The position numbers were made by a program, and so were the translations under genes. From a virus, in the IMG/VR virus record IMGVR_UViG_3300048079_000098, positions 1 through 20,148 of that record: a stretch of DNA of 20,148 bases; one strand, given 5' to 3'. Positions 3 through 16,291 of the stretch are shown here, in pieces. How positions within the stretch are numbered: position 1 is the first letter of the stretch; each line of letters opens with the position of its first letter. The notes beneath the pieces are model-generated. The model ran no database searches. It was not told where the DNA came from and worked only from the letters and a program-made list of their open reading frames with translations.

Positions 3-3000
3 CCCGGGCCCACACGGGCGGTACCGGGTGGCCCGCCGGCGCTCGCCCAGCCGGCGACCGCGGCCGTCATCAAGGACGTGACGCCCGGCGGGCCGCCGAA
101 GACGCATGACTTCAGTTCGATGCAGGTGGACCTGCCGGCGGGCCCGGCCGGCTGGGCCGAGCGAACCGCGGCCAAAATCGCCGACGAGGACTTGGCCGAC
201 GATGGCCGCGAGACCGAGTTCCACGTAACGGTGAAGTACGGCCTGAAGACCGACGACCCCGAGGCCGTACGACAAGCGCTCCGGGATGAAGGGCCGATCA
301 CGCTGACGGCCGGCAAGACCTCGGTGTTCCCGGCGTCAGAGCAGAACGAAAACAGGGATGTCGTGAAGGTGGACGTGACGTCGCCGGATCTGGAGCGGCT
401 GAACCAGAAACTGGCTGGCGCGATCGAGCACGAGGACACCCAGGCCGAGTACAAGCCGCACATCACGTTGGCCTACGTTCACGCGGGGACGGGCCACATC
501 TACGCGGGCATGGACGACATGGAGGGGATGCCGGTCACGGTGGACACGATCCGGTTCTCGACGGCCAGCGGCAAGCAGTTCGACATCAAGTTGACCGGCA
601 AACCAGAAGGCACCCAGCCCGCCGTTTCAGCGAGGGCTCCGAGCGCTGCGCTGCGCCCCGGTTCCCCTGGGGTTCGCCCGTCCGTTGCGGCGCCGTCCGG
701 CGAGCGCCAACCCGCCAAGCCGCGGCCACCTGTAGAATCCGCACATGTTCAACCGGGATCGCCCGACCGCGCCGACAACTCGCGGGACTACCGTATCAGC
801 GCCGAGGACGCGATCGGCGAGGGCGGACCTCGGAAAAAGCTCGGACAAAACATCGAGGCGATCCGGCTCGCCAAGAACATCGAAGGTGAAGCGCGTCCCG
901 CCACCGAGGAAGAGAAGCACATCCTCGTCAAGTATGTCGGGTGGGGCGGCCTCTCGCAGGTGTTCGGGTACGAGCGCGAATGGCGGGGCGCCCAGGAGGA
1001 TCTGCGCGAGTTGTTGACCACCGACGAGTACGAGGCGGCGCGCGCGTCGACGCCCAACGCCCATTACACCTCGGCACCAGTCATTGAGGGCATGTGGAAG
1101 GCGCTCGAACGGCTGGGCCTGGAAGCCGAGGCCGCAGTGCTCGAGCCAGCGCTGGGCGTCGGGCACTTCCTCGGACTCATGCCTGAATCGCTGCTGCCAG
1201 CGCGGCGTAGCGGCATCGAGTTGGATCCGATTTCGGCGCGGATTGCGAAGTTGCTCTACCCCGACGCGGCAATCCACGTTGCGGGCTTCGAGAAAGTGCG
1301 GATGCCCGACAACTTCTACGACGCGATCGTGTCGAACGTGCCGTTCGGCAACTACCCGGTTCTGGATCCCCGCTTCAAGCGGCAGCCGTTCCTCACGGCC
1401 TCGATCCACAACTACTACTTCGCGAGAGCGCTCGACCTGACGCGACCGGGCGGGGTCGTCGCGTTCATCACGTCGAACTACACCATGGACGCGAAGGATC
1501 CGGCCGTGCGCGAGTACCTCTCCAAGCACGCCCGGTTCCTGGGGGCCATCCGGCTGCCCAACACCGCCTTCAAGGCGACGGCTGGCACCGAGGTAACAAC
1601 CGACATCATCTTCCTTCAGAAGATAGCTGGCGCCGACGCGGAAACCTTCATGGGGATCCTCGAGGGAATCGCCAAGGGTCCGCTGACGCCGGAGAGCTGG
1701 GCCAGCACCGAGAACACGAAGGGCCGGGGCGGCGTCGACGTCGAGATCAACGAGTACTACGTGCGCCACCCCGAGATGATGCTCGGCGAGATGACGCTGG
1801 GCGGCACGATGTATCGCGGCGAGGCCCAAGCGCTCGAAGGCCAGTTCACGCCCGAAGCACTCGACCGCGCCATTGAACGGCTGCCGGCGGGTGTCATCCC
1901 GAGGCATACGATCCAGCCCCATGAAATTGGACAGCAGGGGACCATGCTGGACGTACCTGGCGCCGATTACGTCAAGGAGGGGGCCTTCTTTGTGCGGGAC
2001 GGCCAAGTGGTTGTGCGGGAGGGTACGCAGTACCGCCCCGCTGGCCTGAGCGCCGCTGGGGTTGAGCGCATCAAGGGCATGATCGCGGTGCGGGGCGCCG
2101 TTCGCGACGTTCTGCGAACGCAACTCTACTCGGAAAGCGCCAAGGAAATCGAGGATGCCCGCAAGAAGCTGAACAGCGTTTACGATGGGTTCGTCAAGAC
2201 GTTCCGGTTCCTGAGCGATCGAGCAAACGCCGGCGCCTTCCGCGAGGATCCCGATGCCCCGCTCCTGCTCTCGCTGGAGAACTGGGATAAAGACAACAGG
2301 ACCGCGACCAAGACCGACATCTTCACGAAACGCACGGTGCAGCGGGCCCAGCCGGTCGAGCGCGTCGACAAGGCCAGCGAGGCGGTGGCGATTTCGTTGA
2401 ACGAACTCGGCCGCATCGACTGGACGCGGATGCAGGAGTTGACCGGCAAGACGCCGGATGATTTGCGCGACGAATTAGGTGGCCTCGTTTACCACGACCC
2501 CGAAGGTCGCCGCTGGATGATGGCAGACGAATACTTGTCGGGCAACGTGCGGCACAAGCTGGAAATCGCTGAAGCGGCCGCCACATCGGATACAAACTTT
2601 CAACGAAACGTCGAGGCACTCCGCGGGGTCCAGCCCGAAGATATCCGGGCCGAAGAAATTACCGTTCGGCTCGGTGCCGCCTGGCTGCCGGTCGCCGACG
2701 TCCACCGTTTTGCAGCGGGCCTCGTCGAGGCGCGAAACGACAACGACGTCGAAGTCTACCACATCCCCGAGACGGCCACGTGGCGCCTCATCGTCAAGGG
2801 CTATGCGGGAGCATCGCTGGCGAATAGGGAAACGTGGGGAACACCGCGAGTCGAGGCCGCCGAGTTGATGCAGGACCTCCTGAACCTGAAGAACACCAAG
2901 GTCTACGACATCATCATGGTGAATGGCGACGAGAAGCGGGTTCTCAATGCCGAGCAGACGCTGCTTGCCCAAGACAAACAAGCCGCCATCCAGGAACGCT

Positions 3001-6000
3001 TTGCCGCGTGGCTCTGGGGGGACGCTAAGCGTGCGGAAAGGCTCGCGCGCCAGTACAATTGGCAATTCAACAACTTGCGGCTGCCTACCTTTGATGGCTC
3101 TCACCTGACGTTTCCCGGCATGTCGAGGTTGCCGCTCGAGGGCGGGGAGTTGCGCCCACACCAGCAAAACGGTGTCTGGCGGATCATCCGCTCGGGCAAC
3201 ACGCTGCTCGCCCACGTAGTGGGCTCAGGCAAGACGTTCACGATGATCGCGGCCGCCATGGAGATGAAGCGGCTCGGCCTTATCAGGAAGCCTATGTTCG
3301 TGGTGCCGAACCACCTTCTGCCGCAGTGGGAAGCCGCGATCCTTCAACTCTACCCGTCGGCCAACATCTTCGTGGCGGGCAAAGAGTGGTGGGGCAAGGG
3401 GAAACGCCAGCAGGCTATGTCGAGAATTGCGACAGGGGACTGGGACGTCGTGCTTGTCACCCACGCAAGTTTTGGCAGGCTCCCGATGTCCAAGGCGAGC
3501 CGCATGGAGTTTTTCGCGGAGCAGATCCAGGAACTCGAAGCCGCGCGCGAGGACGTCGTGCGGCAGGGCGCCAACAAGAGGAACCCGACCGTTAAGGAGT
3601 TGGAGAAGGCGAAGAAGCGGCTCCAGGTGAAACTTGAGAAACTTGCCAACGAAGCCTCCGACGACAACACCGTAACGTTCGAGGAACTGGGCGTCGACCA
3701 GTTGTTTGTCGACGAGGCCGATCTGTTCAAGAACCTGTTTTTCATCACGAAGATGGACCGCATCGCCGGGCTGACGAACCGCGAGAGCCAACGTGCCTTC
3801 GATATGTTTCTCAAGACGCAGTACGTCACCAAGAGGAACAATGGCCGCGGCCTCGTGCTGGCGACCGGCACGCCCGTCAGCAACACGATGGCGGAACTCT
3901 TTACGATGCAGCGGTACCTTCAGATGCCGTACCTCGAGCAGGTCGGGCTACGCCAGTTCGATGCGTGGGCCAGCCAGTTTGGAGAACCCGTCACGGGCCT
4001 CGAGTTGGCGCCCGAGGGGACGGGCTACCGCATGAACACGCGGTTCGCACGGTTCGTCAACCTCCCCGAGTTGCTGACCGGCTTCCGTATGGTGGCGGAC
4101 ATCCAGACGGCCGAAATGTTGACACTCCCCGTCCCCAATGTGAAGGGGGGCAGGACTCAGGACGTGACGGCTCCATCCACAGATCAAATCAAGGAAATCA
4201 TGGCGGGGCTGAAGGACCGCGCCGAGGCGATTCGCGCGGGGCGCGTTCCCGACAAGCGCGTCGACAACATGCTGAAGATCATGAGCGAAGGCAAGAAGGC
4301 CGCGCTCGATGTGCGGATTCTGAAGCCCGGGGAACCCGACCACCCTGATAGCAAGCTGAACCGCGCGGTGGACAAAATCTTCGGTATTTGGCAGAGAACC
4401 GCCGAGCAGAAATCGGCCCAACTGGTGTTTGCCGACCTGTCGGTCCCGAAGGGTGTGCGCCGCGCCAATAAGTGGGTGCGTGGCGCCCGAATACAGTTCG
4501 AGGATGAAGACGGCCAGGTTCTAACGGGCCTAATCACCGCGCAAGCCGGCAACTCCCTGACGATCACGACCGGGCTGGGCGATGTCGTGACGATTCGAGC
4601 CGACGAGGAAACACTTGTGTCGCTCGAGCTCGACGAGTCCGAGGCTGGCAAGTTCACGGCCTACGCCGACATGAAGGCGAAGCTGATCGGCCGAGGTATC
4701 CCCGAGGATCAGATCGCGTTCATTCATCAGGCCAAGACTGACGCCGAGCGGAAGCGCTTGTTCGCAGCGGTCAACGCCGGCAAGATCAGGATCCTGATGG
4801 GCACTACCGAGAAGATGGGGGCCGGCATGAACGTGCAGGAGCGGCTCGTCGCGCTCCACCACCTGGATCCGCCGTGGCGCCCACGGGATATCGAGCAGCG
4901 CGACGGCCGTATCGTCCGGCAGGGCAACCGGAACAAAGAGGTGGAGCTGTTCGCGTACTTGGCAGAAGGCTCGATGGACGCCTATTGCTGGCAGATCCTC
5001 GCCAACAAGGCGCAGTTCATCGGCCAAGTGATGAGTGGGCGGCTGGACGCCCGTGAGATGGAGGATGTGGGAATCTTTACGGTCACCGCCACGGAGTTCG
5101 CCGCAATCTCCAGCGGCAACCCTCTCATCAAAGAAAAAGTCGAGGTCGACGCGCAAGCCAGGAAGCTGCTGGTGCTACAGACGGCCCACACGCAGCAACA
5201 GGCGCGAATCACCCGGGAGATGGCTGAACTCCCAGGCACCATCGAGCTCTTCAAGGAGCAATTGGCTGGCTACGAAGAGGACCTGGAAGCCACGCGGGAC
5301 GCCCCCGATGAGCTCGTATTGGGGAAGCGGACGTTCCGAGATGAGGCGATCCGCGCCGAGGGCGCCAAGGCGCTGGCCGAGACGTTGGCGAGCTGGAAGG
5401 GCACCCCGGGGAAACGTGCGATCGGCAGTTACCGGGGCTTCAAGTTGCTTGCGCGCACCCATGCAGTGGCGGGGGAGCGTGCCTGGGAGGTGGTCTCGAA
5501 AGTTGACCCGGAACTCCAGCGCAACCGGACCTACTCCGCGAATGCGAACCAGGAGAACCCCGCCGCCACCATCACCAGCATGAGCTACGTCTTTCGCGAG
5601 GGGATTCAGCGGCAAATCGCCTCATGGCAAAGCCAGCTAACCGAGCGGGAGAAGCAACGCGCCGACATAAAGGAGCAGGTGGGCAAGCCGTTTCCCCAGG
5701 CTGAGAAACTCCAGACGCTATTGAAGCGCCAACAGGAACTCAACAGCCTCCTGGACATCAACAAGCCCGTCGGCCAAACCGGCGACGACGAGCCCGACGG
5801 CCCGCCCGACGGTTCCGCCGCCGCGCCCACCGCTGTCGAGCAGGCTATCGACACCGGCGCCAGCATTCTGCGGCAAGTCATTGAGGACGAGGCTGGCGCC
5901 CTGAACCTCGACGAATTGGGCCGCAATCTTCGCAAGTGGAAGGAGATCGGCGGCATCGCCGGGCAAGCAGCTAAGCGCGCCCGTTTCGGCTCGACCGGAT

Positions 6001-8675
6001 TCTACCACTGGGCGAACAATACGTGGCACACGCCGCGGTATGTCGGTGAGCTGCACCCGGCGTTTATGCCGTTTGTCGATCGAGCGGCGGCCGCCTACGA
6101 AGAGGGCGATCAGACTGCCCATGAGCTCGTCGAGATGATGGGTGACTACTTCAGTCTTCCCGACGAAGCCCGGCACGTTCTGGATAATCGCCTCATCGAC
6201 TCTCGTTTTGCCCATCGTGAGACGATTGACGAGCGGAACCTCAGCGCGGACCAAGTGCGCGGGTTCCGTGCGGCCCGTCAGACCATGCACCGGGCGCTCG
6301 ATCTGCTGGCCGATCTTACCGTTGATCTTGCGTCTGACGGAAAACTCACGGACGCAGCAACGCTCGACAGCCAGGACGCCGTGCAGCGGGCCCTTGAGGA
6401 CGAAGGTGTCCCGGAAGAACGGGCGGCAGGCTTGGCGCAGAAAACCTGGGAAGCCCTCAAGGTGATCCGCGACGCCAAAGCCAAGGGATATGTGCCGTTC
6501 AGCCGGTTCGGCGACTACACGTATGGGCTATATCCCACCAAGGCCGGGCTGGCCCAGAACCCGAATCTGTTGCCTATTCATGAGGCGCGCGAGAACGTCG
6601 TTGAAGCGGCGGCGCGGTACTGGAAGATCACGCACACGCCGCGGTACAGGCGGTTGATCGACAGCGGCCAATACGAGGCGCGTGCTCCGAAGTTCCGCCA
6701 GACGAAGGCTCGCAAAGAAATACTGAAGGACCTGATCGGGTTCGAGTTGCAGTTGTTCGCCAAGATCGCGGAGGCGAACCCAGAAGTGCTGAAGTTCTAC
6801 GGTCTTGAGCCGGGCGAGATCGAGAAGACCGCCGAGGCTGTGCAGAAAATGCAGCAACGTCTCGGCTTCCGCGCCCACTTTGTCGAGTCACGGCTGGTCC
6901 CCGGCTTCGAGCGGGATCTGGCGCGACCGTTCGCTGACTACATCCTTGGTATAAGCCGGCACATCACCCGGGCACGGATGTTCCGAGACTTCTCTCGCTA
7001 CATGCAGCGCCTGCCCAAGAACTCGCAGCTCCACAAGTACGCCAAGGATTATGTCGCCTACCTCCAGTCACCCGAGGAAGAGTGGGGCTGGGTGCGCGGG
7101 CTGATGTTCCACTGGGCACTCGGGATCGTGAACCCGATGGCCGCGGCCGTCAACCTCAGCCAGGTCACGATGATGACGGGCCCGTGGATGCTCCAGTATG
7201 CGGCCCCACAAGCGGTTGGCACCGAGATACTCAAAGCCTACCGCGATGTCGGCCGAGCCATGCGCGTGGGTGAACTCCGGCTCGACTACTCCAAACTGCC
7301 AGAAGATGTGCGCGACGATGCTCGGCAGGCCCTCGAAGAAGGACTGTTGCGCGCCCAAGCGACTGAGGAACTCTACGGCCTCGCTCGCCGGCCAGGGCCG
7401 GTTAAAGGGATCAGCGAGCGGGCCAAGCGCGTCTCCACGTTTCTCTTCAGCGGTTCCGAGCACATCAACCGGCTCGTGAGCTTTGTTGCAATTCACCGCC
7501 TCTGGACGGCTCGGAATCTTGCGCGCGCCGAGATCGTGACGGCCCGGAAGGCGTTTGAACGTCGTCCCAGGAAGTTCGGGCTGCCCATCGCCTACTTCCC
7601 GTCGGCGCTCGACTTCGCCGAGTACGGCGTGCGGATCACCCAGCTCGAATACGGCCGCTACAACCGCCCGAAGCTGTTCCGCGGCAACTTCCGTGCCCTA
7701 CTGGGCGTGTTCAAGATGTTCAGCATCGGCGACATGGAACTAGCGATGCGCCTGTACCGGGCTGCGGGTGCTGGCGGCGCCGGCGGGAGGGGCGGGGCGG
7801 CGCCACCCAGCCCGCCAGACCACCGCGCCCTCATGGCGCTGATGAGCTACATCGCGATCGGGGTAGCGGCCCACGGCATCATGGGTCTGCATTTTGCCGA
7901 AATGGCCGCCAAGGTCGGGGATCTGGCCTTCCGGGCCTTTACGGGCGGGCGCGACATCGACATGGAAGCAGTGCTCCACGAGAACCTCGCCAAGATGACG
8001 AGCGCGCAGATCGCTGACATGCTGCTCCACGGGGTGAGCTGGCTTACGCCTTACGATTTCTCGCGATCGCTCGGCCGGGGTGATCCGCTCGGCTTGGCGA
8101 GAGCTATCGAGGCAGGTTCCTGGACGGCCGCCCTGCCCGTCACCGCAACGGCCGGGCGAATCGTTGCGGGCGCCGGCGAAGCGCTGGCCGGCGAGGGTGG
8201 CCGCGCCGCCGAAGCGCTGACGCCCAGGACGCTCAGCGGCGCCGCTCGGGCGGCTAGGCTCGCCAAGGAAGGGCTACGAACCCGATCCGGCGGCCAGATC
8301 GTTCCGAAGGAGCAGTTCGGCCCTCCTGAGCTGATTGGCGCCGCCGCCAGCGTGCCGCTCACGCGGGTCAGCCGGGCATACGAAGAGGAGCGGCGCGTCG
8401 CCGTTCTTCGCACCGGGGTCCAGGAACCCAAGGCCCGGCTGGTGCATCGCGTGGCCGCCGCGATCGACGCCAACGATCAGTCTCAGATCAAGAAGCTGAT
8501 GGGTGATGTGGTCGAACACAACCAGCGGGACCCCGGCAACCCGATCACCAGCCAGATCATCAAGGATGCGGTCAAGCTACGAGTGATCCCGCCGGATATC
8601 CGGCGCATTCTGTCTCTGCCCGCTGGCCAGCGCGGTACGTATATTCAGGGTGGCCCGCCCCCGCTTCGGCCTTGA
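3..8675 (+). CDS. Giant polyvalent phage protein (2H phosphoesterase-like, N6 methylase, SNF2 helicase, PLxRFG C-terminal part), 5' partial
   Basis: The frame has no stop back to the left edge, and the residues before the GTG at 78 are Ala/Pro-rich linker, so the gene begins outside the window. Residues are numbered from that GTG. Residues 10-140 resemble a 2H phosphoesterase/RNA ligase fold with two HxT motifs (HVT 49-51, HIT 128-130). A Pro-rich linker follows (about 180-240). An adenine-methylase-like domain has a motif-I-like LEPALGVGHF near 354 and SNVPFG (419-424) in place of the usual NPPF. A SNF2-type helicase follows: Walker A VGSGKT 1048-1053, DEAD 1212-1215, motif VI EQRDGRIVRQG 1606-1616. 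Coiled-coil and Pro-rich segments reach about 1940. The helical C-terminal part carries YVPFSRFG (2138-2145), a PLxRFG-type motif, and hydrophobic stretches near 2341-2362 and 2585-2608. Methylase plus SNF2 helicase is known from DarB-like antirestriction proteins injected with phage DNA. Protection of incoming DNA is inferred. Confidence 0.85.
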   Translation, partial: PGPTRAVPGGPPALAQPATAAVIKDVTPGGPPKTHDFSSMQVDLPAGPAGWAERTAAKIADEDLADDGRETEFHVTVKYGLKTDDPEAVRQALRDEGPITLTAGKTSVFPASEQNENRDVVKVDVTSPDLERLNQKLAGAIEHEDTQAEYKPHITLAYVHAGTGHIYAGMDDMEGMPVTVDTIRFSTASGKQFDIKLTGKPEGTQPAVSARAPSAALRPGSPGVRPSVAAPSGERQPAKPRPPVESAHVQPGSPDRADNSRDYRISAEDAIGEGGPRKKLGQNIEAIRLAKNIEGEARPATEEEKHILVKYVGWGGLSQVFGYEREWRGAQEDLRELLTTDEYEAARASTPNAHYTSAPVIEGMWKALERLGLEAEAAVLEPALGVGHFLGLMPESLLPARRSGIELDPISARIAKLLYPDAAIHVAGFEKVRMPDNFYDAIVSNVPFGNYPVLDPRFKRQPFLTASIHNYYFARALDLTRPGGVVAFITSNYTMDAKDPAVREYLSKHARFLGAIRLPNTAFKATAGTEVTTDIIFLQKIAGADAETFMGILEGIAKGPLTPESWASTENTKGRGGVDVEINEYYVRHPEMMLGEMTLGGTMYRGEAQALEGQFTPEALDRAIERLPAGVIPRHTIQPHEIGQQGTMLDVPGADYVKEGAFFVRDGQVVVREGTQYRPAGLSAAGVERIKGMIAVRGAVRDVLRTQLYSESAKEIEDARKKLNSVYDGFVKTFRFLSDRANAGAFREDPDAPLLLSLENWDKDNRTATKTDIFTKRTVQRAQPVERVDKASEAVAISLNELGRIDWTRMQELTGKTPDDLRDELGGLVYHDPEGRRWMMADEYLSGNVRHKLEIAEAAATSDTNFQRNVEALRGVQPEDIRAEEITVRLGAAWLPVADVHRFAAGLVEARNDNDVEVYHIPETATWRLIVKGYAGASLANRETWGTPRVEAAELMQDLLNLKNTKVYDIIMVNGDEKRVLNAEQTLLAQDKQAAIQERFAAWLWGDAKRAERLARQYNWQFNNLRLPTFDGSHLTFPGMSRLPLEGGELRPHQQNGVWRIIRSGNTLLAHVVGSGKTFTMIAAAMEMKRLGLIRKPMFVVPNHLLPQWEAAILQLYPSANIFVAGKEWWGKGKRQQAMSRIATGDWDVVLVTHASFGRLPMSKASRMEFFAEQIQELEAAREDVVRQGANKRNPTVKELEKAKKRLQVKLEKLANEASDDNTVTFEELGVDQLFVDEADLFKNLFFITKMDRIAGLTNRESQRAFDMFLKTQYVTKRNNGRGLVLATGTPVSNTMAELFTMQRYLQMPYLEQVGLRQFDAWASQFGEPVTGLELAPEGTGYRMNTRFARFVNLPELLTGFRMVADIQTAEMLTLPVPNVKGGRTQDVTAPSTDQIKEIMAGLKDRAEAIRAGRVPDKRVDNMLKIMSEGKKAALDVRILKPGEPDHPDSKLNRAVDKIFGIWQRTAEQKSAQLVFADLSVPKGVRRANKWVRGARIQFEDEDGQVLTGLITAQAGNSLTITTGLGDVVTIRADEETLVSLELDESEAGKFTAYADMKAKLIGRGIPEDQIAFIHQAKTDAERKRLFAAVNAGKIRILMGTTEKMGAGMNVQERLVALHHLDPPWRPRDIEQRDGRIVRQGNRNKEVELFAYLAEGSMDAYCWQILANKAQFIGQVMSGRLDAREMEDVGIFTVTATEFAAISSGNPLIKEKVEVDAQARKLLVLQTAHTQQQARITREMAELPGTIELFKEQLAGYEEDLEATRDAPDELVLGKRTFRDEAIRAEGAKALAETLASWKGTPGKRAIGSYRGFKLLARTHAVAGERAWEVVSKVDPELQRNRTYSANANQENPAATITSMSYVFREGIQRQIASWQSQLTEREKQRADIKEQVGKPFPQAEKLQTLLKRQQELNSLLDINKPVGQTGDDEPDGPPDGSAAAPTAVEQAIDTGASILRQVIEDEAGALNLDELGRNLRKWKEIGGIAGQAAKRARFGSTGFYHWANNTWHTPRYVGELHPAFMPFVDRAAAAYEEGDQTAHELVEMMGDYFSLPDEARHVLDNRLIDSRFAHRETIDERNLSADQVRGFRAARQTMHRALDLLADLTVDLASDGKLTDAATLDSQDAVQRALEDEGVPEERAAGLAQKTWEALKVIRDAKAKGYVPFSRFGDYTYGLYPTKAGLAQNPNLLPIHEARENVVEAAARYWKITHTPRYRRLIDSGQYEARAPKFRQTKARKEILKDLIGFELQLFAKIAEANPEVLKFYGLEPGEIEKTAEAVQKMQQRLGFRAHFVESRLVPGFERDLARPFADYILGISRHITRARMFRDFSRYMQRLPKNSQLHKYAKDYVAYLQSPEEEWGWVRGLMFHWALGIVNPMAAAVNLSQVTMMTGPWMLQYAAPQAVGTEILKAYRDVGRAMRVGELRLDYSKLPEDVRDDARQALEEGLLRAQATEELYGLARRPGPVKGISERAKRVSTFLFSGSEHINRLVSFVAIHRLWTARNLARAEIVTARKAFERRPRKFGLPIAYFPSALDFAEYGVRITQLEYGRYNRPKLFRGNFRALLGVFKMFSIGDMELAMRLYRAAGAGGAGGRGGAAPPSPPDHRALMALMSYIAIGVAAHGIMGLHFAEMAAKVGDLAFRAFTGGRDIDMEAVLHENLAKMTSAQIADMLLHGVSWLTPYDFSRSLGRGDPLGLARAIEAGSWTAALPVTATAGRIVAGAGEALAGEGGRAAEALTPRTLSGAARAARLAKEGLRTRSGGQIVPKEQFGPPELIGAAASVPLTRVSRAYEEERRVAVLRTGVQEPKARLVHRVAAAIDANDQSQIKKLMGDVVEHNQRDPGNPITSQIIKDAVKLRVIPPDIRRILSLPAGQRGTYIQGGPPPLRP

Positions 8676-12835: not shown

Positions 12836-13173
12836 GGTTCTTTCGTGCGCGCCTTCTTGGTTGCTGGCGTGGGTTGTACCACGATAGCCAGCTTCGCCTT
12901 CCCGGACAGCAGCAACCGCACTTCATCTGCGCTCAAAAGCCTAGCATGTCCATATGCATCTCGGTCCCAGCAGCACTCCGAGAAACTCTGAATGAGGGTT
13001 CGCTCCGACCGGGCGTCGAAGAAGTTGCCGACAACGATAGCAACAGCAGCGCGATGCGACGTGAAGCGGTGGTCGAGGTTCTTCGCTTCGGCGCAGGGCC
13101 ATTTAGCATCCGCCGAATCCTCAGCACAGAGGCAATAAGTACAAATGCGAGTCAGTGTTGCCGGGTCAGTCAT
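12832..13173 (-). CDS. Small cysteine-containing hypothetical protein
   Basis: The 113-residue product is taken from ATG 13173, which overlaps the stop of the Gp37/Gp68 gene (ATGA) and has GAGGAGG (13181-13187) seven bases upstream. The longer in-frame ORF start at 13251 lies inside that gene. Residues 11-16 contain ICTYCLC and another Cys follows at 27, which could bind a metal. The central HRFTSHRAAVAIVVGNFFDARSERTLI is probably helical. I recognise no family. Its placement in a run of overlapping genes argues that it is real. Confidence 0.7.
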   Translation of the reverse strand: MTDPATLTRICTYCLCAEDSADAKWPCAEAKNLDHRFTSHRAAVAIVVGNFFDARSERTLIQSFSECCWDRDAYGHARLLSADEVRLLLSGKAKLAIVVQPTPATKKARTKEP

Positions 13174-14195
13174 CGGCGGGCCTCCTCGATGTCGCGCGCC
13201 ATCTCTTCGAGCGGCTGTCCCTCGGCATTCGCATCGGGCATCTCTCGCCACTCACGGCCGTCCAGTATCGCGCCAGCGCGCTGCTTCCCCGCCCGCCAGA
13301 CTTTGGTTCCGCCGTCCAAGACGCGCATTGGCGTTGACCGCTTCGCGGTGTGGGGCGTCCACTCTCCCCATTGCTTGAAAAAGTACGCCACACCGACCGC
13401 TTGGCAGGCGTCCCGTGCCGCCCGGAACCAATTGGGATGAGATGGCTTCGCGCCAGCCCCGCTCTCCCCGCCGGCGATGAGCCAGCCAAGTTTCGGGCTG
13501 GCGTATCCGACTCCGATATTCGTTATTTGCTCCCCGCGGAGCACGTCCAGTTCTCCAGCGCCATTTATGGCCCGGAGAACTCCATGGGATTCGGGGATGG
13601 GAATGCGCGTGAAATCCACCGCGCCCCATGCCGGCTCGTAGCTTACTCCGAGCACCCGCGCCCCAAGCGCCCGCAGCTTCAGTAGTTCCCGGATGCGCCC
13701 GACGTTCTCGGGCCCAGTCACGCTGGTCAGCAGCCAGAAGTTCTCCGGGATCAGATTGTCCTTCGAGCAGTGGGCGTAGAAGTAGTCGTACATGCGGCGC
13801 GGCCTCTTCGTGAGGATGATGTAGATATGCCGTGACTCCGCTAACGGCACGATGAAATCGTCAAGCCAGTCGATCGGCAAACTCTCCGTGAACGTGTCCC
13901 CCATATCATTCAGGAAGATCAGCCGGGGGGAGCCATTCAGCCACGGCTTGTCTGGGCGGTCTTTGCCAGCCAAGTCCGACCACTTCAGCGCCTCTTGCAA
14001 ACGCTCCGGGAAGATCCGTGGCTGCTCGAACGCCGTCGGCCAGCCCTTCTTTCCAGGGCCACCGTGCAAGACCGTCAGATTCCCCGCGTAGCAGCGCTTG
14101 ACGCCAGCAGCGGGGTTCCACAATTCACACCCGTCGCAACCCATCTGTAGGTTCAGCGTCGAATCCGCCCACTCGATCTTTGTGTGTTTCCCCAT
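13170..14195 (-). CDS. Phage Gp37/Gp68-family protein (DUF5131), predicted radical-SAM-like
   Basis: The 341-residue protein has the full DUF5131 signature. It starts TKIEWADSTLN, followed by a Cys cluster with C20, C23 and C35 (GCDGCELWNP, then RCYAGN). Middle segments NDMGDTF and IILTKRP follow. Near the C-terminus LIAGGESGAGAKP and YFFKQWGEW are characteristic. Family members are common in phages and prophages; the cysteines suggest an iron-sulphur, radical-SAM-like enzyme, but the substrate is unknown. I choose ATG 14195 over GTG 14204 because GGGGGTG (14202-14208) lies six bases upstream of the ATG. Repeat array 1 ends only 20 bp upstream, so the array occupies the position of its leader. 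Confidence 0.85.
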   Translation of the reverse strand: MGKHTKIEWADSTLNLQMGCDGCELWNPAAGVKRCYAGNLTVLHGGPGKKGWPTAFEQPRIFPERLQEALKWSDLAGKDRPDKPWLNGSPRLIFLNDMGDTFTESLPIDWLDDFIVPLAESRHIYIILTKRPRRMYDYFYAHCSKDNLIPENFWLLTSVTGPENVGRIRELLKLRALGARVLGVSYEPAWGAVDFTRIPIPESHGVLRAINGAGELDVLRGEQITNIGVGYASPKLGWLIAGGESGAGAKPSHPNWFRAARDACQAVGVAYFFKQWGEWTPHTAKRSTPMRVLDGGTKVWRAGKQRAGAILDGREWREMPDANAEGQPLEEMARDIEEARR

Positions 14196-14215
14196 CGCGT
14201 TCACCCCCGTTCTCG

Positions 14216-14491
14216 TGGTGCGCTCAATCTATTTGGCTCGCTCCGCTCGCATGGTTCTCTCTTCGCCGATGGCTCGCTCTCAATCTTTGGTCCCCTGGCG
14301 CGAACTGGCTCGCTCCCTGCCGATGGTTCCCTCTGAGTTCTTGGCTCGCTCTCATCCCATGGCCCATTCGCTTCGCTTGGCTCGCTCAGGCTGCATGGTT
14401 CTCTCTGCGCGGATGGCTCGCTCCGTTCCCATGGTTCACTCGAAGTTTTGGGCTCGGTTAGTCTGGTCCGCTCTCCGTTGATGGCTCGTGC
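14216..14491 (-). repeat. TIGR-like array 1: 16 conserved 10-mers on an 18-bp grid
   Basis: Conserved 10-mers start every 18 bp from 14216 to 14450. After one 4-bp slip, two more start at 14464 and 14482. Given on the plus strand, class A (TGGCTCGCTC) starts at 14234, 14270, 14306, 14342, 14378 and 14414, all identical, with degenerate copies at 14450 and 14482. Class B (TGGTYCNCTC) starts at 14216, 14252, 14288, 14324, 14360, 14396, 14432 and 14464. The 8-bp segments between them are all different, for example AATCTATT, CGCTCGCA, TTCGCCGA, TCAATCTT. The composite unit is therefore 36 bp with two spacers. Degeneracy is greatest at the two ends. The right end encodes the last residues of the Tas-like protein; the left end stops 20 bp before the Gp37/Gp68 start. 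Strand of transcription is assumed from the genes. Confidence 0.93.
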
Positions 14492-15324
14492 TTGGCCGGA
14501 ACAATGTGCGGCCAATTCGGTGGCGGAATCACGTGCGCGTGCTCCATGTGCGCGATCGGGTACGGCAGCGGCGGCGCCGTGCCGAACGCCAACCAGAACG
14601 CGACGTGGTGGTAGTGCGCCAGAAACAACTTGACGGCGTACCGCTTCGCCCGCGCATGAAGATGGCCAGCCGGCAACCGACCAGCTTCGTACGACTTCCG
14701 TGCCTCCTTCTCTTTGCCGATCTTGAACTTCTCCAACTTGATGCGGGCCTGCTCGGCAAACAGCCCTTCGTCGTTGCGCCGGATCTCGAGTTCCTTGCGG
14801 GCCAGCCACACCTTGCCGTAAACGTCTTGCTCGAGACCCGATACCTTGACGAAGCTCTCGCCGATCTTCCAGCACAGCGTTTTCAGCGAGGCGTTCCAGG
14901 GCCGCTTCTTGCCCTTCTGCCACTCGACCGTCGGGTCCAGCCCGGCGAACCGCCAGATATGGCCGGCCGTCGGCGCCTTCTGGATGTCGATGTGGGCCAA
15001 CAGCCCGGCCGCGATGACGGGCCCGATACCGCAAACGGATCTGGCCCACTGGCCCAACGGCTGATCGGCCGAGTAACTGTCCAGCATGGCCTTGATGTTT
15101 GCTTCGAGTTGCCGCGTTGCGACGTCCAGTTCGATGATGGCTTCGTGCGGCTCGCCCGACTGTTCCATGGACAGCATCTGGTTGGATGATCGCTTACGGT
15201 TCTCCTGCATCGCATAATAGTCGTCGACCAGAAAACGCACCTCGGCCGGCGACAGCAACTTGGCGGCGTTGCGGAGATCGCGTGATAACTTCCTGACGGG
15301 GTCAAACTGCGGTGCTGCGCTCAT
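14458..15324 (-). CDS. Tas-like protein (Nop / IS110 C-terminal Transposase_20-like domain), no fused nuclease
   Basis: The start is ATG 15324, with GGAGAGGAG six bases upstream; the longer ORF from 15393 begins inside the array. The 288-residue protein has a helical N-terminus with a probable coiled coil (about 25-85). A helix-hairpin-helix/Nop-like core follows: GIGPVIAAGLLAHI (99-112), GHIWRFAGLD (121-130), RPWNASLKTLCWKIGESFVK (141-160). A charged helical region and a His-rich HLHARAKRYAVKLFLAHYHHVAFW (221-244) follow. This is the fold of the C-terminal half of IS110-family transposases. The N-terminal DEDD RuvC domain of IS110 is missing, and the loop after AGLDP (VEWQKGKK) lacks the catalytic Ser. 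Flanked by two arrays with 36-bp dual-spacer units, it fits Tas, the guide-RNA-binding protein of TIGR-Tas systems. A degraded IS110 transposase is the alternative. Confidence 0.8.
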   Translation of the reverse strand: MSAAPQFDPVRKLSRDLRNAAKLLSPAEVRFLVDDYYAMQENRKRSSNQMLSMEQSGEPHEAIIELDVATRQLEANIKAMLDSYSADQPLGQWARSVCGIGPVIAAGLLAHIDIQKAPTAGHIWRFAGLDPTVEWQKGKKRPWNASLKTLCWKIGESFVKVSGLEQDVYGKVWLARKELEIRRNDEGLFAEQARIKLEKFKIGKEKEARKSYEAGRLPAGHLHARAKRYAVKLFLAHYHHVAFWLAFGTAPPLPYPIAHMEHAHVIPPPNWPHIVPAKHEPSTESGPD

Positions 15325-15330
15325 CTGTGG

Positions 15331-15339
15331 CTCCTCTCC
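15331..15339 (-). promoter_or_regulatory. Ribosome binding site of the Tas-like gene
   Basis: GGAGAGGAG on the minus strand lies six bases before ATG 15324, between the start codon and the first unit of array 2 (15357). It decides the start and shows that array 2 lies in the 5' leader, not in the coding part. Confidence 0.8.
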
Positions 15340-15356
15340 TTTGAAGTTTGGAATTG

Positions 15357-15798
15357 CGGCTCGCTCGCTGCTGATGGTTCCCTCTCGGTACATGGCTCGC
15401 TCTTGATCCCTGGTCCCCTCGACTCACATGGCTCGCTCTACCTGTCTGGTCCTCTTAGGCAAGATGGCTCGCTCGTCTCAGATGGTTCTCTCAGCCCATT
15501 TGGCTCGCTCACATCCTCTGGTCCCCTCGTTGTACCTGGCTCGCTCCCGCATGATGGTTCCCTCCGGGTTCGTGGCTCGCTCCCAGTCTTTGGTCCCCTC
15601 GAAACGATTGGCTCGCTCCACTCGCCTGGTTCGCTCGGCACACTTGGCTCGCTCATCCCACTTGGTCCCCTCGGAACGCTTGGCTCGCTCACTTCCTATG
15701 GTTCCCTCATGGGGACTGGCTTGCTCTCGCTTCATGGTCCGCTCGCTTCTGTTGGCTCGCTCACAACTGTTGGTTCGCTAGCTTCTGTTGGCTCGCTT
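15357..15798 (-). repeat. TIGR-like array 2: 25 conserved 10-mers on an exact 18-bp grid
   Basis: Twenty-five 10-mers start at 15357 and every 18 bp up to 15789 without one slip. On the plus strand, class A TGGCTCGCTC fills the odd places (13 copies, 10 identical; single changes at 15357, 15717 and 15789). Class B TGGTYCNCTC fills the even places (12 copies). On the gene strand these read GAGCGAGCCA and GAGNGRACCA. The 24 spacers of 8 bp are nearly all unique (GCTGCTGA, TCGGTACA, TTGATCCC, GACTCACA and so on); only GCTTCTGT occurs twice. The repeat unit is 36 bp: A, spacer, B, spacer. Conservation covers every base of the 10-mers, including third codon positions in all frames, so the constraint acts on the nucleic acid. 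It starts within the 3' end of the RuvC-like gene and ends 33 bp before the Tas-like start. Confidence 0.95.
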
Positions 15799-16291
15799 TC
15801 GTTCTCGTGGTCTGGCTGTCCCAAAACGTCAGCGCAAGCGCCAGCGCGCTCCACTCGTCGCCGGCAATCCCGTACAGGGGACCGCCCTTCCTGATTGTCG
15901 CCGGTCCGCCAAAGCGGTCGATGATGGCCCGGCGGATGTTCGAGTCCTTGGCCCGGGAATCGTGGCAGAGGTGCTGTTTCACGACGAGACGCGGAATCAG
16001 GTGTGCGTGCGTCCCGTCGAAAGTTTGCACAAACCGCCCGATCCACACACACGTCTCGAATACCTCGGCGCCCACTGGCATCCCGTAGGACGCGATCATC
16101 TCGATCGCGAGCACGATGTCCTTCCCGCAATCGACGCGATCTGTCCAGTAACACTTGAGCCTGTGCAGGCAGGACGCATTCGGAGCCCGCTCGTGGTGGA
16201 GGATTTCGCGGCCGTTCCACAAGACCCACGCAGTTTGCGCGGGTCCAGGGTCCACGCCGATCACGAAGCTGATGGTGTCCGCCGTCGGCAT
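15761..16291 (-). CDS. RuvC-like nuclease (phage Holliday-junction resolvase type)
   Basis: The 176-residue protein has an RNase H/RuvC fold. A first strand FVIGVDPGPAQTAWVLW carries D14 in the DPG motif. VLAIEMIASYGMPVG supplies E64. The last helix begins at GDEWSALALAL with D145, and D116 (AKDSNIRRAII) is another acidic candidate. It resembles phage proteins with the EMIASYGMPVG segment that I place with RuvC-like enzymes. The start ATG 16291 has TGAGGT five bases upstream, which overlaps the DnaB stop. Placement after DnaB fits resolution of replication or recombination intermediates. However, array 2 and the Tas-like gene follow immediately, and the last 13 codons overlap the first repeat units. 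A nuclease working in trans with the Tas-like protein is therefore possible. Confidence 0.85.
   Translation of the reverse strand: MPTADTISFVIGVDPGPAQTAWVLWNGREILHHERAPNASCLHRLKCYWTDRVDCGKDIVLAIEMIASYGMPVGAEVFETCVWIGRFVQTFDGTHAHLIPRLVVKQHLCHDSRAKDSNIRRAIIDRFGGPATIRKGGPLYGIAGDEWSALALALTFWDSQTTRTKASQQKLANQQL

What the first reader, a model, noticed from the sequence alone, without database searches (positions are those of the whole stretch)
14216..15798. TIGR-Tas-like locus: dual-spacer arrays on both sides of a Nop/IS110-like protein
Seen: 41 conserved 10-mers in two arrays, strict 18-bp grid, two alternating repeat classes and therefore a 36-bp unit with two independent 8-bp spacers, flanking a single gene. 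Known: TIGR arrays (tandem interspaced guide RNA) give about 36-nt RNAs with two short spacers and are used by Tas proteins, whose Nop-like domain is related to box C/D snoRNP proteins and IS110 transposases; they occur in phages. Inferred: this phage carries such a system, with array 2 in the leader and array 1 in the tail of the tas gene. CRISPR does not fit, because the spacers are only 8 bp.
Basis: partly seen in the sequence, partly recalled or inferred. Interest (0 to 1): 0.96.

Follow-up and report, generated by a model that had tools for sequence, protein, structure and literature searches.

The report
Phage TIGR-TasA guide-RNA locus
A phage genome fragment carries a nuclease-less, RNA-guided DNA-binding protein (TasA) flanked by two arrays that encode about 21 dual-spacer guide RNAs; it is a clear, ordinary member of the recently published TIGR-Tas family, whose natural targets are still unknown.

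Summary
On the minus strand 41 ten-base repeats of two alternating classes (edge GAGCGAGCCA, loop GAGGGAACCA) sit on an 18-nt grid in two blocks, 25 upstream and 16 downstream of one 288-residue gene, giving about 21 units of 36 nt with two 8-nt spacers each. The grid is far beyond chance. The protein scores 196 bits against NCBI's TIGR-Tas model (cut-off 100). Its closest solved relatives in sequence and predicted fold are TasH and TasR, then IS110 transposases. It has no HNH or RuvC domain, so it is the TasA type. Nearly all fetched relatives from phage contigs and prophages carry the same kind of array on the tas-sense strand; one of them is the published Salicola phage TIGR locus, with a near-identical edge repeat and 8-nt spacers. 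It is therefore a new member of a known kind. Beyond the window, near-identical phages carry strongly reshuffled arrays, and shared blocks keep the tigRNA register (24 against 4), which is independent support that the two spacers of one unit act together. Searches for natural targets found none.

The parts
14458..15324 (-). tasA gene, 288 residues, nuclease-less TIGR-associated (Nop-domain) protein; start ATG at 15324 behind a GGAGAGGAG ribosome-binding site
   Evidence: NCBIfam NF052498.1 196 bits, cut-off 100; Pfam Transposase_20; PDB TasH/TasR by sequence and by fold; model pLDDT 85
15357..15798 (-). upstream TIGR array: 13 edge + 12 loop repeats, 12 complete edge-A-loop-B units, ending about 30 nt before the tas start codon
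14208..14491 (-). downstream TIGR array: 8 edge + 8 loop repeats, about 8 units; first two repeats (14491-14482, 14473-14464) lie inside the last codons of tas; ends at the start of the next gene
15808..15817 (-). weak extra loop-like copy (AGCCAGACCA) followed by spacer CGAGAACG, at the outer end of the upstream array
15800..15811 (-). 12-nt exact direct repeat ACCACGAGAACG, first copy (outer end of the upstream array)
   Evidence: family D9
14208..14219 (-). 12-nt exact direct repeat ACCACGAGAACG, second copy (outer end of the downstream array)
   Evidence: family D9
15761..16291 (-). neighbour, not part of the system: Holliday-junction-resolvase-like gene whose last codons run into the upstream array
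   Evidence: PHROG 1770, 4e-17
13170..14204 (-). neighbour, not part of the system: DUF5131 gene starting directly after the downstream array (probable start ATG at 14195)
   Evidence: Pfam PF07505, 2e-53

Best explanation
This is a phage-borne TIGR-TasA system. A transcript running through the phage's minus-strand replication genes (inferred) covers both arrays and the tas gene. TasA binds the array RNA, and a host RNase cuts it in the edge repeats into 36-nt tigRNAs (processing shown for other Tas proteins in PMC12045711, inferred here). A TasA dimer holds one tigRNA, the CCA end of the edge and loop repeats each gripping one subunit. Spacer A (8 nt) then pairs with one strand and spacer B (8 nt) with the other strand of adjacent DNA. 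Since the protein has no nuclease domain, it most likely acts as a programmable DNA-bending roadblock that silences its targets or blocks their replication. Rival mobile elements or host genes are the likeliest targets. The targets are not known. The confidence given is for membership in TIGR-Tas with RNA-guided DNA binding; the roadblock role against other elements alone is about 0.5.
For: Curated family match far over the cut-off. Profile match to TasH 2.9e-56 and TasR 7.6e-33, against IS110 at about 1e-6. Predicted fold closest to TasH and TasR complexes with tigRNA and DNA. No HNH or RuvC domain. Array layout and grid. Nearly all of about 80 relatives have the same kind of array on the tas-sense strand. 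Edge repeat GAGCGAGCCA close to AAGCGAGCCA of the published Salicola phage array. The last base of edge and loop repeats changes together across loci: 62 A/A, 13 G/G, 2 A/G, as expected if both bind the same site of a symmetric dimer. Shared spacer blocks keep the edge-A-loop-B register, 24 against 4.
Against: No target was found for any guide tested. No sigma-70-like promoter or intrinsic terminator was found in the region by simple pattern scans. RNA production and DNA binding are untested. The edge/loop covariation and the block counts are not corrected for shared ancestry.
Confidence: 0.93

Rival explanations
1. TasA with its guides is an RNA-guided aid to the phage itself, for example bending or marking its own or host DNA for recombination, integration or segregation, rather than a weapon.
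For: PMC12045711 suggests such a role and reports TasA genes next to ParB genes; one relative here (L003) follows a ParA-like gene (judged by eye). The window's tas lies next to a Holliday-junction-resolvase-like gene.
Against: No gene neighbour recurs across the 86 relatives beyond a handful. No guide of the window matches the window's own 20 kb exactly.
Confidence: 0.2
2. The gene is an IS110-type transposase, and the repeats are its ends or a bridge-RNA locus.
For: Pfam Transposase_20 match; PHROG 4285 is annotated as a transposase.
Against: The IS110 NCBIfam model scores 30 bits against a cut-off of 140, while the Tas model scores 196 against 100. There is no DEDD catalytic domain: the protein is essentially the Nop part alone. 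Bridge RNAs are single units, not arrays of 41 repeats.
Confidence: 0.01
3. The repeats are a CRISPR array, coding repeats of a protein, or a plain satellite.
For: Regular spacing; open frames run through the arrays.
Against: Spacers of 8 nt and two alternating repeats do not fit CRISPR. Spacers show no clear codon rhythm. The same repeats accompany tas across about 80 loci with different spacers.
Confidence: 0.01
4. The locus is a decayed or inactive TIGR system.
For: A few degenerate repeats (14455, 14369, 15817); no terminator found.
Against: Intact tas frame with the family-invariant residues of alignments A1 and A3 present; most repeats near-perfect.
Confidence: 0.05

Closest known systems
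TIGR-TasA (Flavonifractor plautii and others, PMC12045711)
   Same: Solo Nop-domain protein beside dual-repeat arrays of 36-nt units; [quoted passage not shown]
   Different: 8-nt spacers with 10-nt repeats instead of 9-nt spacers; phage context; arrays on both sides
Salicola phage CGphi29 TIGR-TasH (SpTIGR; PDB 9vzx, 9w02-9w04, 21kl)
   Same: 8-nt spacers, edge repeat AAGCGAGCCA against GAGCGAGCCA here, phage-borne; closest solved protein by profile and fold
   Different: TasH carries an N-terminal HNH nuclease; the window protein does not. Loop repeat AGACAACCA against GAGGGAACCA
TIGR-TasR (PDB 9mty)
   Same: Nop fold and tigRNA logic; repeats ending in CCA
   Different: RuvC nuclease domain absent here; 9-nt spacers there
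IS110 family (IS621, ISCro4) bridge-RNA recombinases
   Same: Related Nop-like RNA-binding region
   Different: No transposase catalytic domain, no bridge RNA, an array of guides instead

Membership tests
TIGR-Tas | Tas protein with Nop domain | tested here: met
   NCBIfam NF052498.1 196 bits, cut-off 100; Foldseek best hits TasH and TasR
TIGR-Tas | Array of two distinct alternating repeats of 8-12 nt with short spacers, 36-nt unit | tested here: met
   41 repeats of 10 nt, 8-nt spacers, 33 pairs at exactly 18 nt
TIGR-Tas | Repeats end in a box C motif (CCA) that covaries between edge and loop | tested here: met
   CCA in nearly all repeats; across 79 loci the last base is A/A 62, G/G 13, A/G 2
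TIGR-Tas | Repeats start with box D (UG in TasR arrays) | tested here: inconclusive
   Here both repeats start with GA(G), shared by edge and loop and by most Tas relatives; the paper says the motifs may diverge but match between edge and loop
TIGR-Tas | Array begins and ends with a truncated edge repeat, then a terminator | tested here: inconclusive
   Upstream array begins and ends with edge repeats; no terminator found; the downstream array runs into the next gene
TIGR-Tas | 36-nt tigRNAs bound by the protein | not testable with these tools
   Needs small-RNA sequencing
TIGR-Tas | Two spacers of one unit act as a pair on adjacent DNA | tested here: inconclusive
   Indirect support: in related phages shared blocks keep the unit's register, 24 against 4. 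No target found
TasA subtype of TIGR-Tas | No HNH or RuvC nuclease domain | tested here: met
   Only Transposase_20 in Pfam; 288 residues, all-helical fold from residue 15
IS110 transposase | DEDD catalytic domain and match to the IS110 model | tested here: not met
   30 bits, cut-off 140; catalytic domain absent
CRISPR | One repeat class of about 25-36 nt with spacers of similar size | tested here: not met
   Two alternating 10-nt repeats and 8-nt spacers

The most novel reading that the evidence does not exclude
In this phage TasA clade the arrays are a fast-changing repertoire: phages with 99-100% identical Tas and flanks about 90-96% identical share only part of their spacers, in shuffled order, and the shared blocks tend to be whole edge-A-loop-B units. 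TIGR arrays would then evolve by recombining ready-made tigRNA units between related phages, so that the guide is the unit of selection and the system is an exchangeable set of weapons or regulators.
Probability: 0.5. Interest if true: 0.6.

Novelty: new member of a known kind. Interest (0 to 1): 0.35.

Why it matters
The locus itself adds one clear case to TIGR-Tas, a family described in 2025. Its value is as one of a large, easily collected phage TasA group in which guide arrays can be compared between near-identical phages. That makes two questions left open in the founding paper approachable: how arrays change, and what TasA is aimed at. It also shows that these genes are filed as transposases in PHROGs, so phage annotation hides the family.

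Tried and rejected
Target search in the fetched phage flanks (583 kb, 1412 guides, four strand arrangements, gaps 0-2): no more matches than with spacers re-paired at random. Viral-contig scans for the one guide shared by the diverged loci L010 and L015: 69 stretches in the expected arrangement and 23 in the other. Much of the excess is one family of 29 contigs with the same site at the start of what looks like a structural gene, which one lucky site could give; rejected as evidence. Four guides of the Halomonas prophage relative against 90 genomes of its genus: no exact match. Gene-neighbour association: nothing recurs widely. Rfam: no match in the window. PADLOC: no match. Whole-window search in annotated phages: no match. 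Protein-coding repeats, CRISPR and IS110 were considered and rejected for the reasons given above.

Full report
What is there. On the minus strand of the window two blocks of short repeats flank one gene. Reading 5' to 3', the upstream block (15798-15357) has 25 repeats, edge class GAGCGAGCCA alternating with loop class GAGGGAACCA or close variants, each followed by 8 variable bases. The gene follows about 30 nt later (15324-14458, ATG behind a GGAGAGGAG site). The downstream block has 16 repeats (14491-14216); its first two lie in the last codons of the gene, and its end touches the next gene. The automatic parse found 38 of these repeats; the other three, two of them in the gene's end and one degenerate, were read by eye in the same register. 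The grid is not chance: 33 neighbour pairs at exactly 18 nt, against a maximum of 1 in 100 shuffles and 0 on the other strand. The spacers show no clear codon rhythm.

What the protein is. Pfam sees only the IS110-type Transposase_20 domain (4e-5) and PHROGs calls its family a transposase (9e-51). NCBI's newer curated model for TIGR-Tas proteins scores 196 bits with a cut-off of 100, while the IS110 model scores 30 with a cut-off of 140. A profile of 40 relatives finds TasH at 2.9e-56, TasR at 7.6e-33 and IS110 recombinases at about 1e-6 among solved structures. A model made from 38 sequences (pLDDT 85, pTM 0.83) has TasH and TasR as its best fold matches, then IS110 enzymes. PDB 9MTY is the TasR structure of the founding paper. 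No nuclease domain is present, so this is the TasA type; the word endonuclease in NCBI's model name should not be carried over.

Relatives. A search of viral contigs with an alignment of five Tas proteins confirmed 418 relatives, of which 80 were fetched. With those from further searches, nearly all loci carry dual-repeat arrays on the tas-sense strand, most often with edge repeat GAGCGAGCCA and a loop repeat of the form GAGnGnACCA. Loci that the automatic parser missed also have arrays when read by eye (L031, L046, L073); L033 ends at the gene. Bacterial genomes with a copy include Halomonas, an Acidobacteriaceae strain and Candidatus Propionivibrio. The published Salicola phage CGphi29 locus is among the relatives; its array reads AAGCGAGCCA N8 AGACAACCA N8 and ends in a terminator built on the last edge repeat, which fixes which class is the edge. 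The last base of the repeats is A in both classes in 62 loci, G in both in 13 and mixed A/G in 2 (not corrected for ancestry).

Array change. L011, L012, L013 and L014 have 99-100% identical Tas proteins, and flanks about 90-96% identical in the longer non-array alignments, yet their arrays differ in length (26 to 94 repeats) and share only part of their spacers, in shuffled order. One guide (GGAGTATC / AGCACGCG) is present in all four, each time with the same unusual loop repeat. Over twelve groups of related loci, maximal shared spacer runs of even length keep the edge-A-loop-B register in 24 of 28 distinct cases (p 0.0002). Recombination at edge repeats could give this without selection on the guide, and the groups are related, so the p-value is a guide only. 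Two diverged loci, L010 and L015, share one exact guide near the far end of their arrays.

Targets. None were found. Four strand arrangements with gaps of 0-2 in 583 kb of phage flanks gave no excess over re-paired controls for 1412 guides. The wider scans were negative or uninterpretable. The strand arrangement expected from the founding paper's 8-nt 3' overhangs is spacer A followed by the reverse complement of spacer B; this is my reading of its text.

How it works, and what is shown. Shown here: family membership, array anatomy, conservation across relatives, lack of a nuclease domain. Shown elsewhere for relatives (PMC12045711): processing to 36-nt tigRNAs and DNA targeting by the two spacers on opposite strands. 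Inferred: that the same holds for this locus, and that a nuclease-less Tas blocks transcription or replication at its targets. Verdict: a real and well-preserved TIGR-TasA locus, a new member of a known kind.

Noticed in passing
window 14208-14219 and 15800-15811: An exact 12-nt repeat (ACCACGAGAACG on the minus strand) marks both outer ends of the array-tas-array block, that is, the same loop end and spacer at both extremes; it could be a trace of duplication or of movement of the whole block.
   Followed up: partly
window 15744-15798: The first two units of the upstream array carry the same spacer A (ACAGAAGC), a sign of recent unit duplication.
   Followed up: no
L003 5000-5870 and L002 upstream of tas: In L003 the tas gene follows a ParA-like gene and a small DNA-binding-like gene; L002 has a similar small gene. 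The founding paper mentions ParB beside TasA. Judged by eye only.
   Followed up: no
L011-L014: Near-identical phages with strongly reshuffled TIGR arrays; one guide with a distinctive loop repeat is kept in all four.
   Followed up: partly
PHROG 4285 (window 14458-15324): This family is annotated as transposase, integration and excision, but the window's Tas protein is a strong member; phage annotation by PHROGs hides Tas genes.
   Followed up: no
L005 (Microcystis phage Mvi-JY20) 4893-6000: A TIGR array (ATGCGAGCCA / ACGAAACCC) with a terminator built on the last repeat follows a Tas-like gene annotated as hypothetical protein.
   Followed up: no
window 3-8675: A very long open frame (about 2890 residues) runs off the window's left edge; it contains helicase- and methyltransferase-like stretches by eye.
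   Followed up: no
BFVD A0A1B1IUH6: A 449-residue viral protein is the closest predicted viral fold to the window's Tas (E 2e-18) and is about 160 residues longer; possibly a Tas protein with an extra domain.
   Followed up: no
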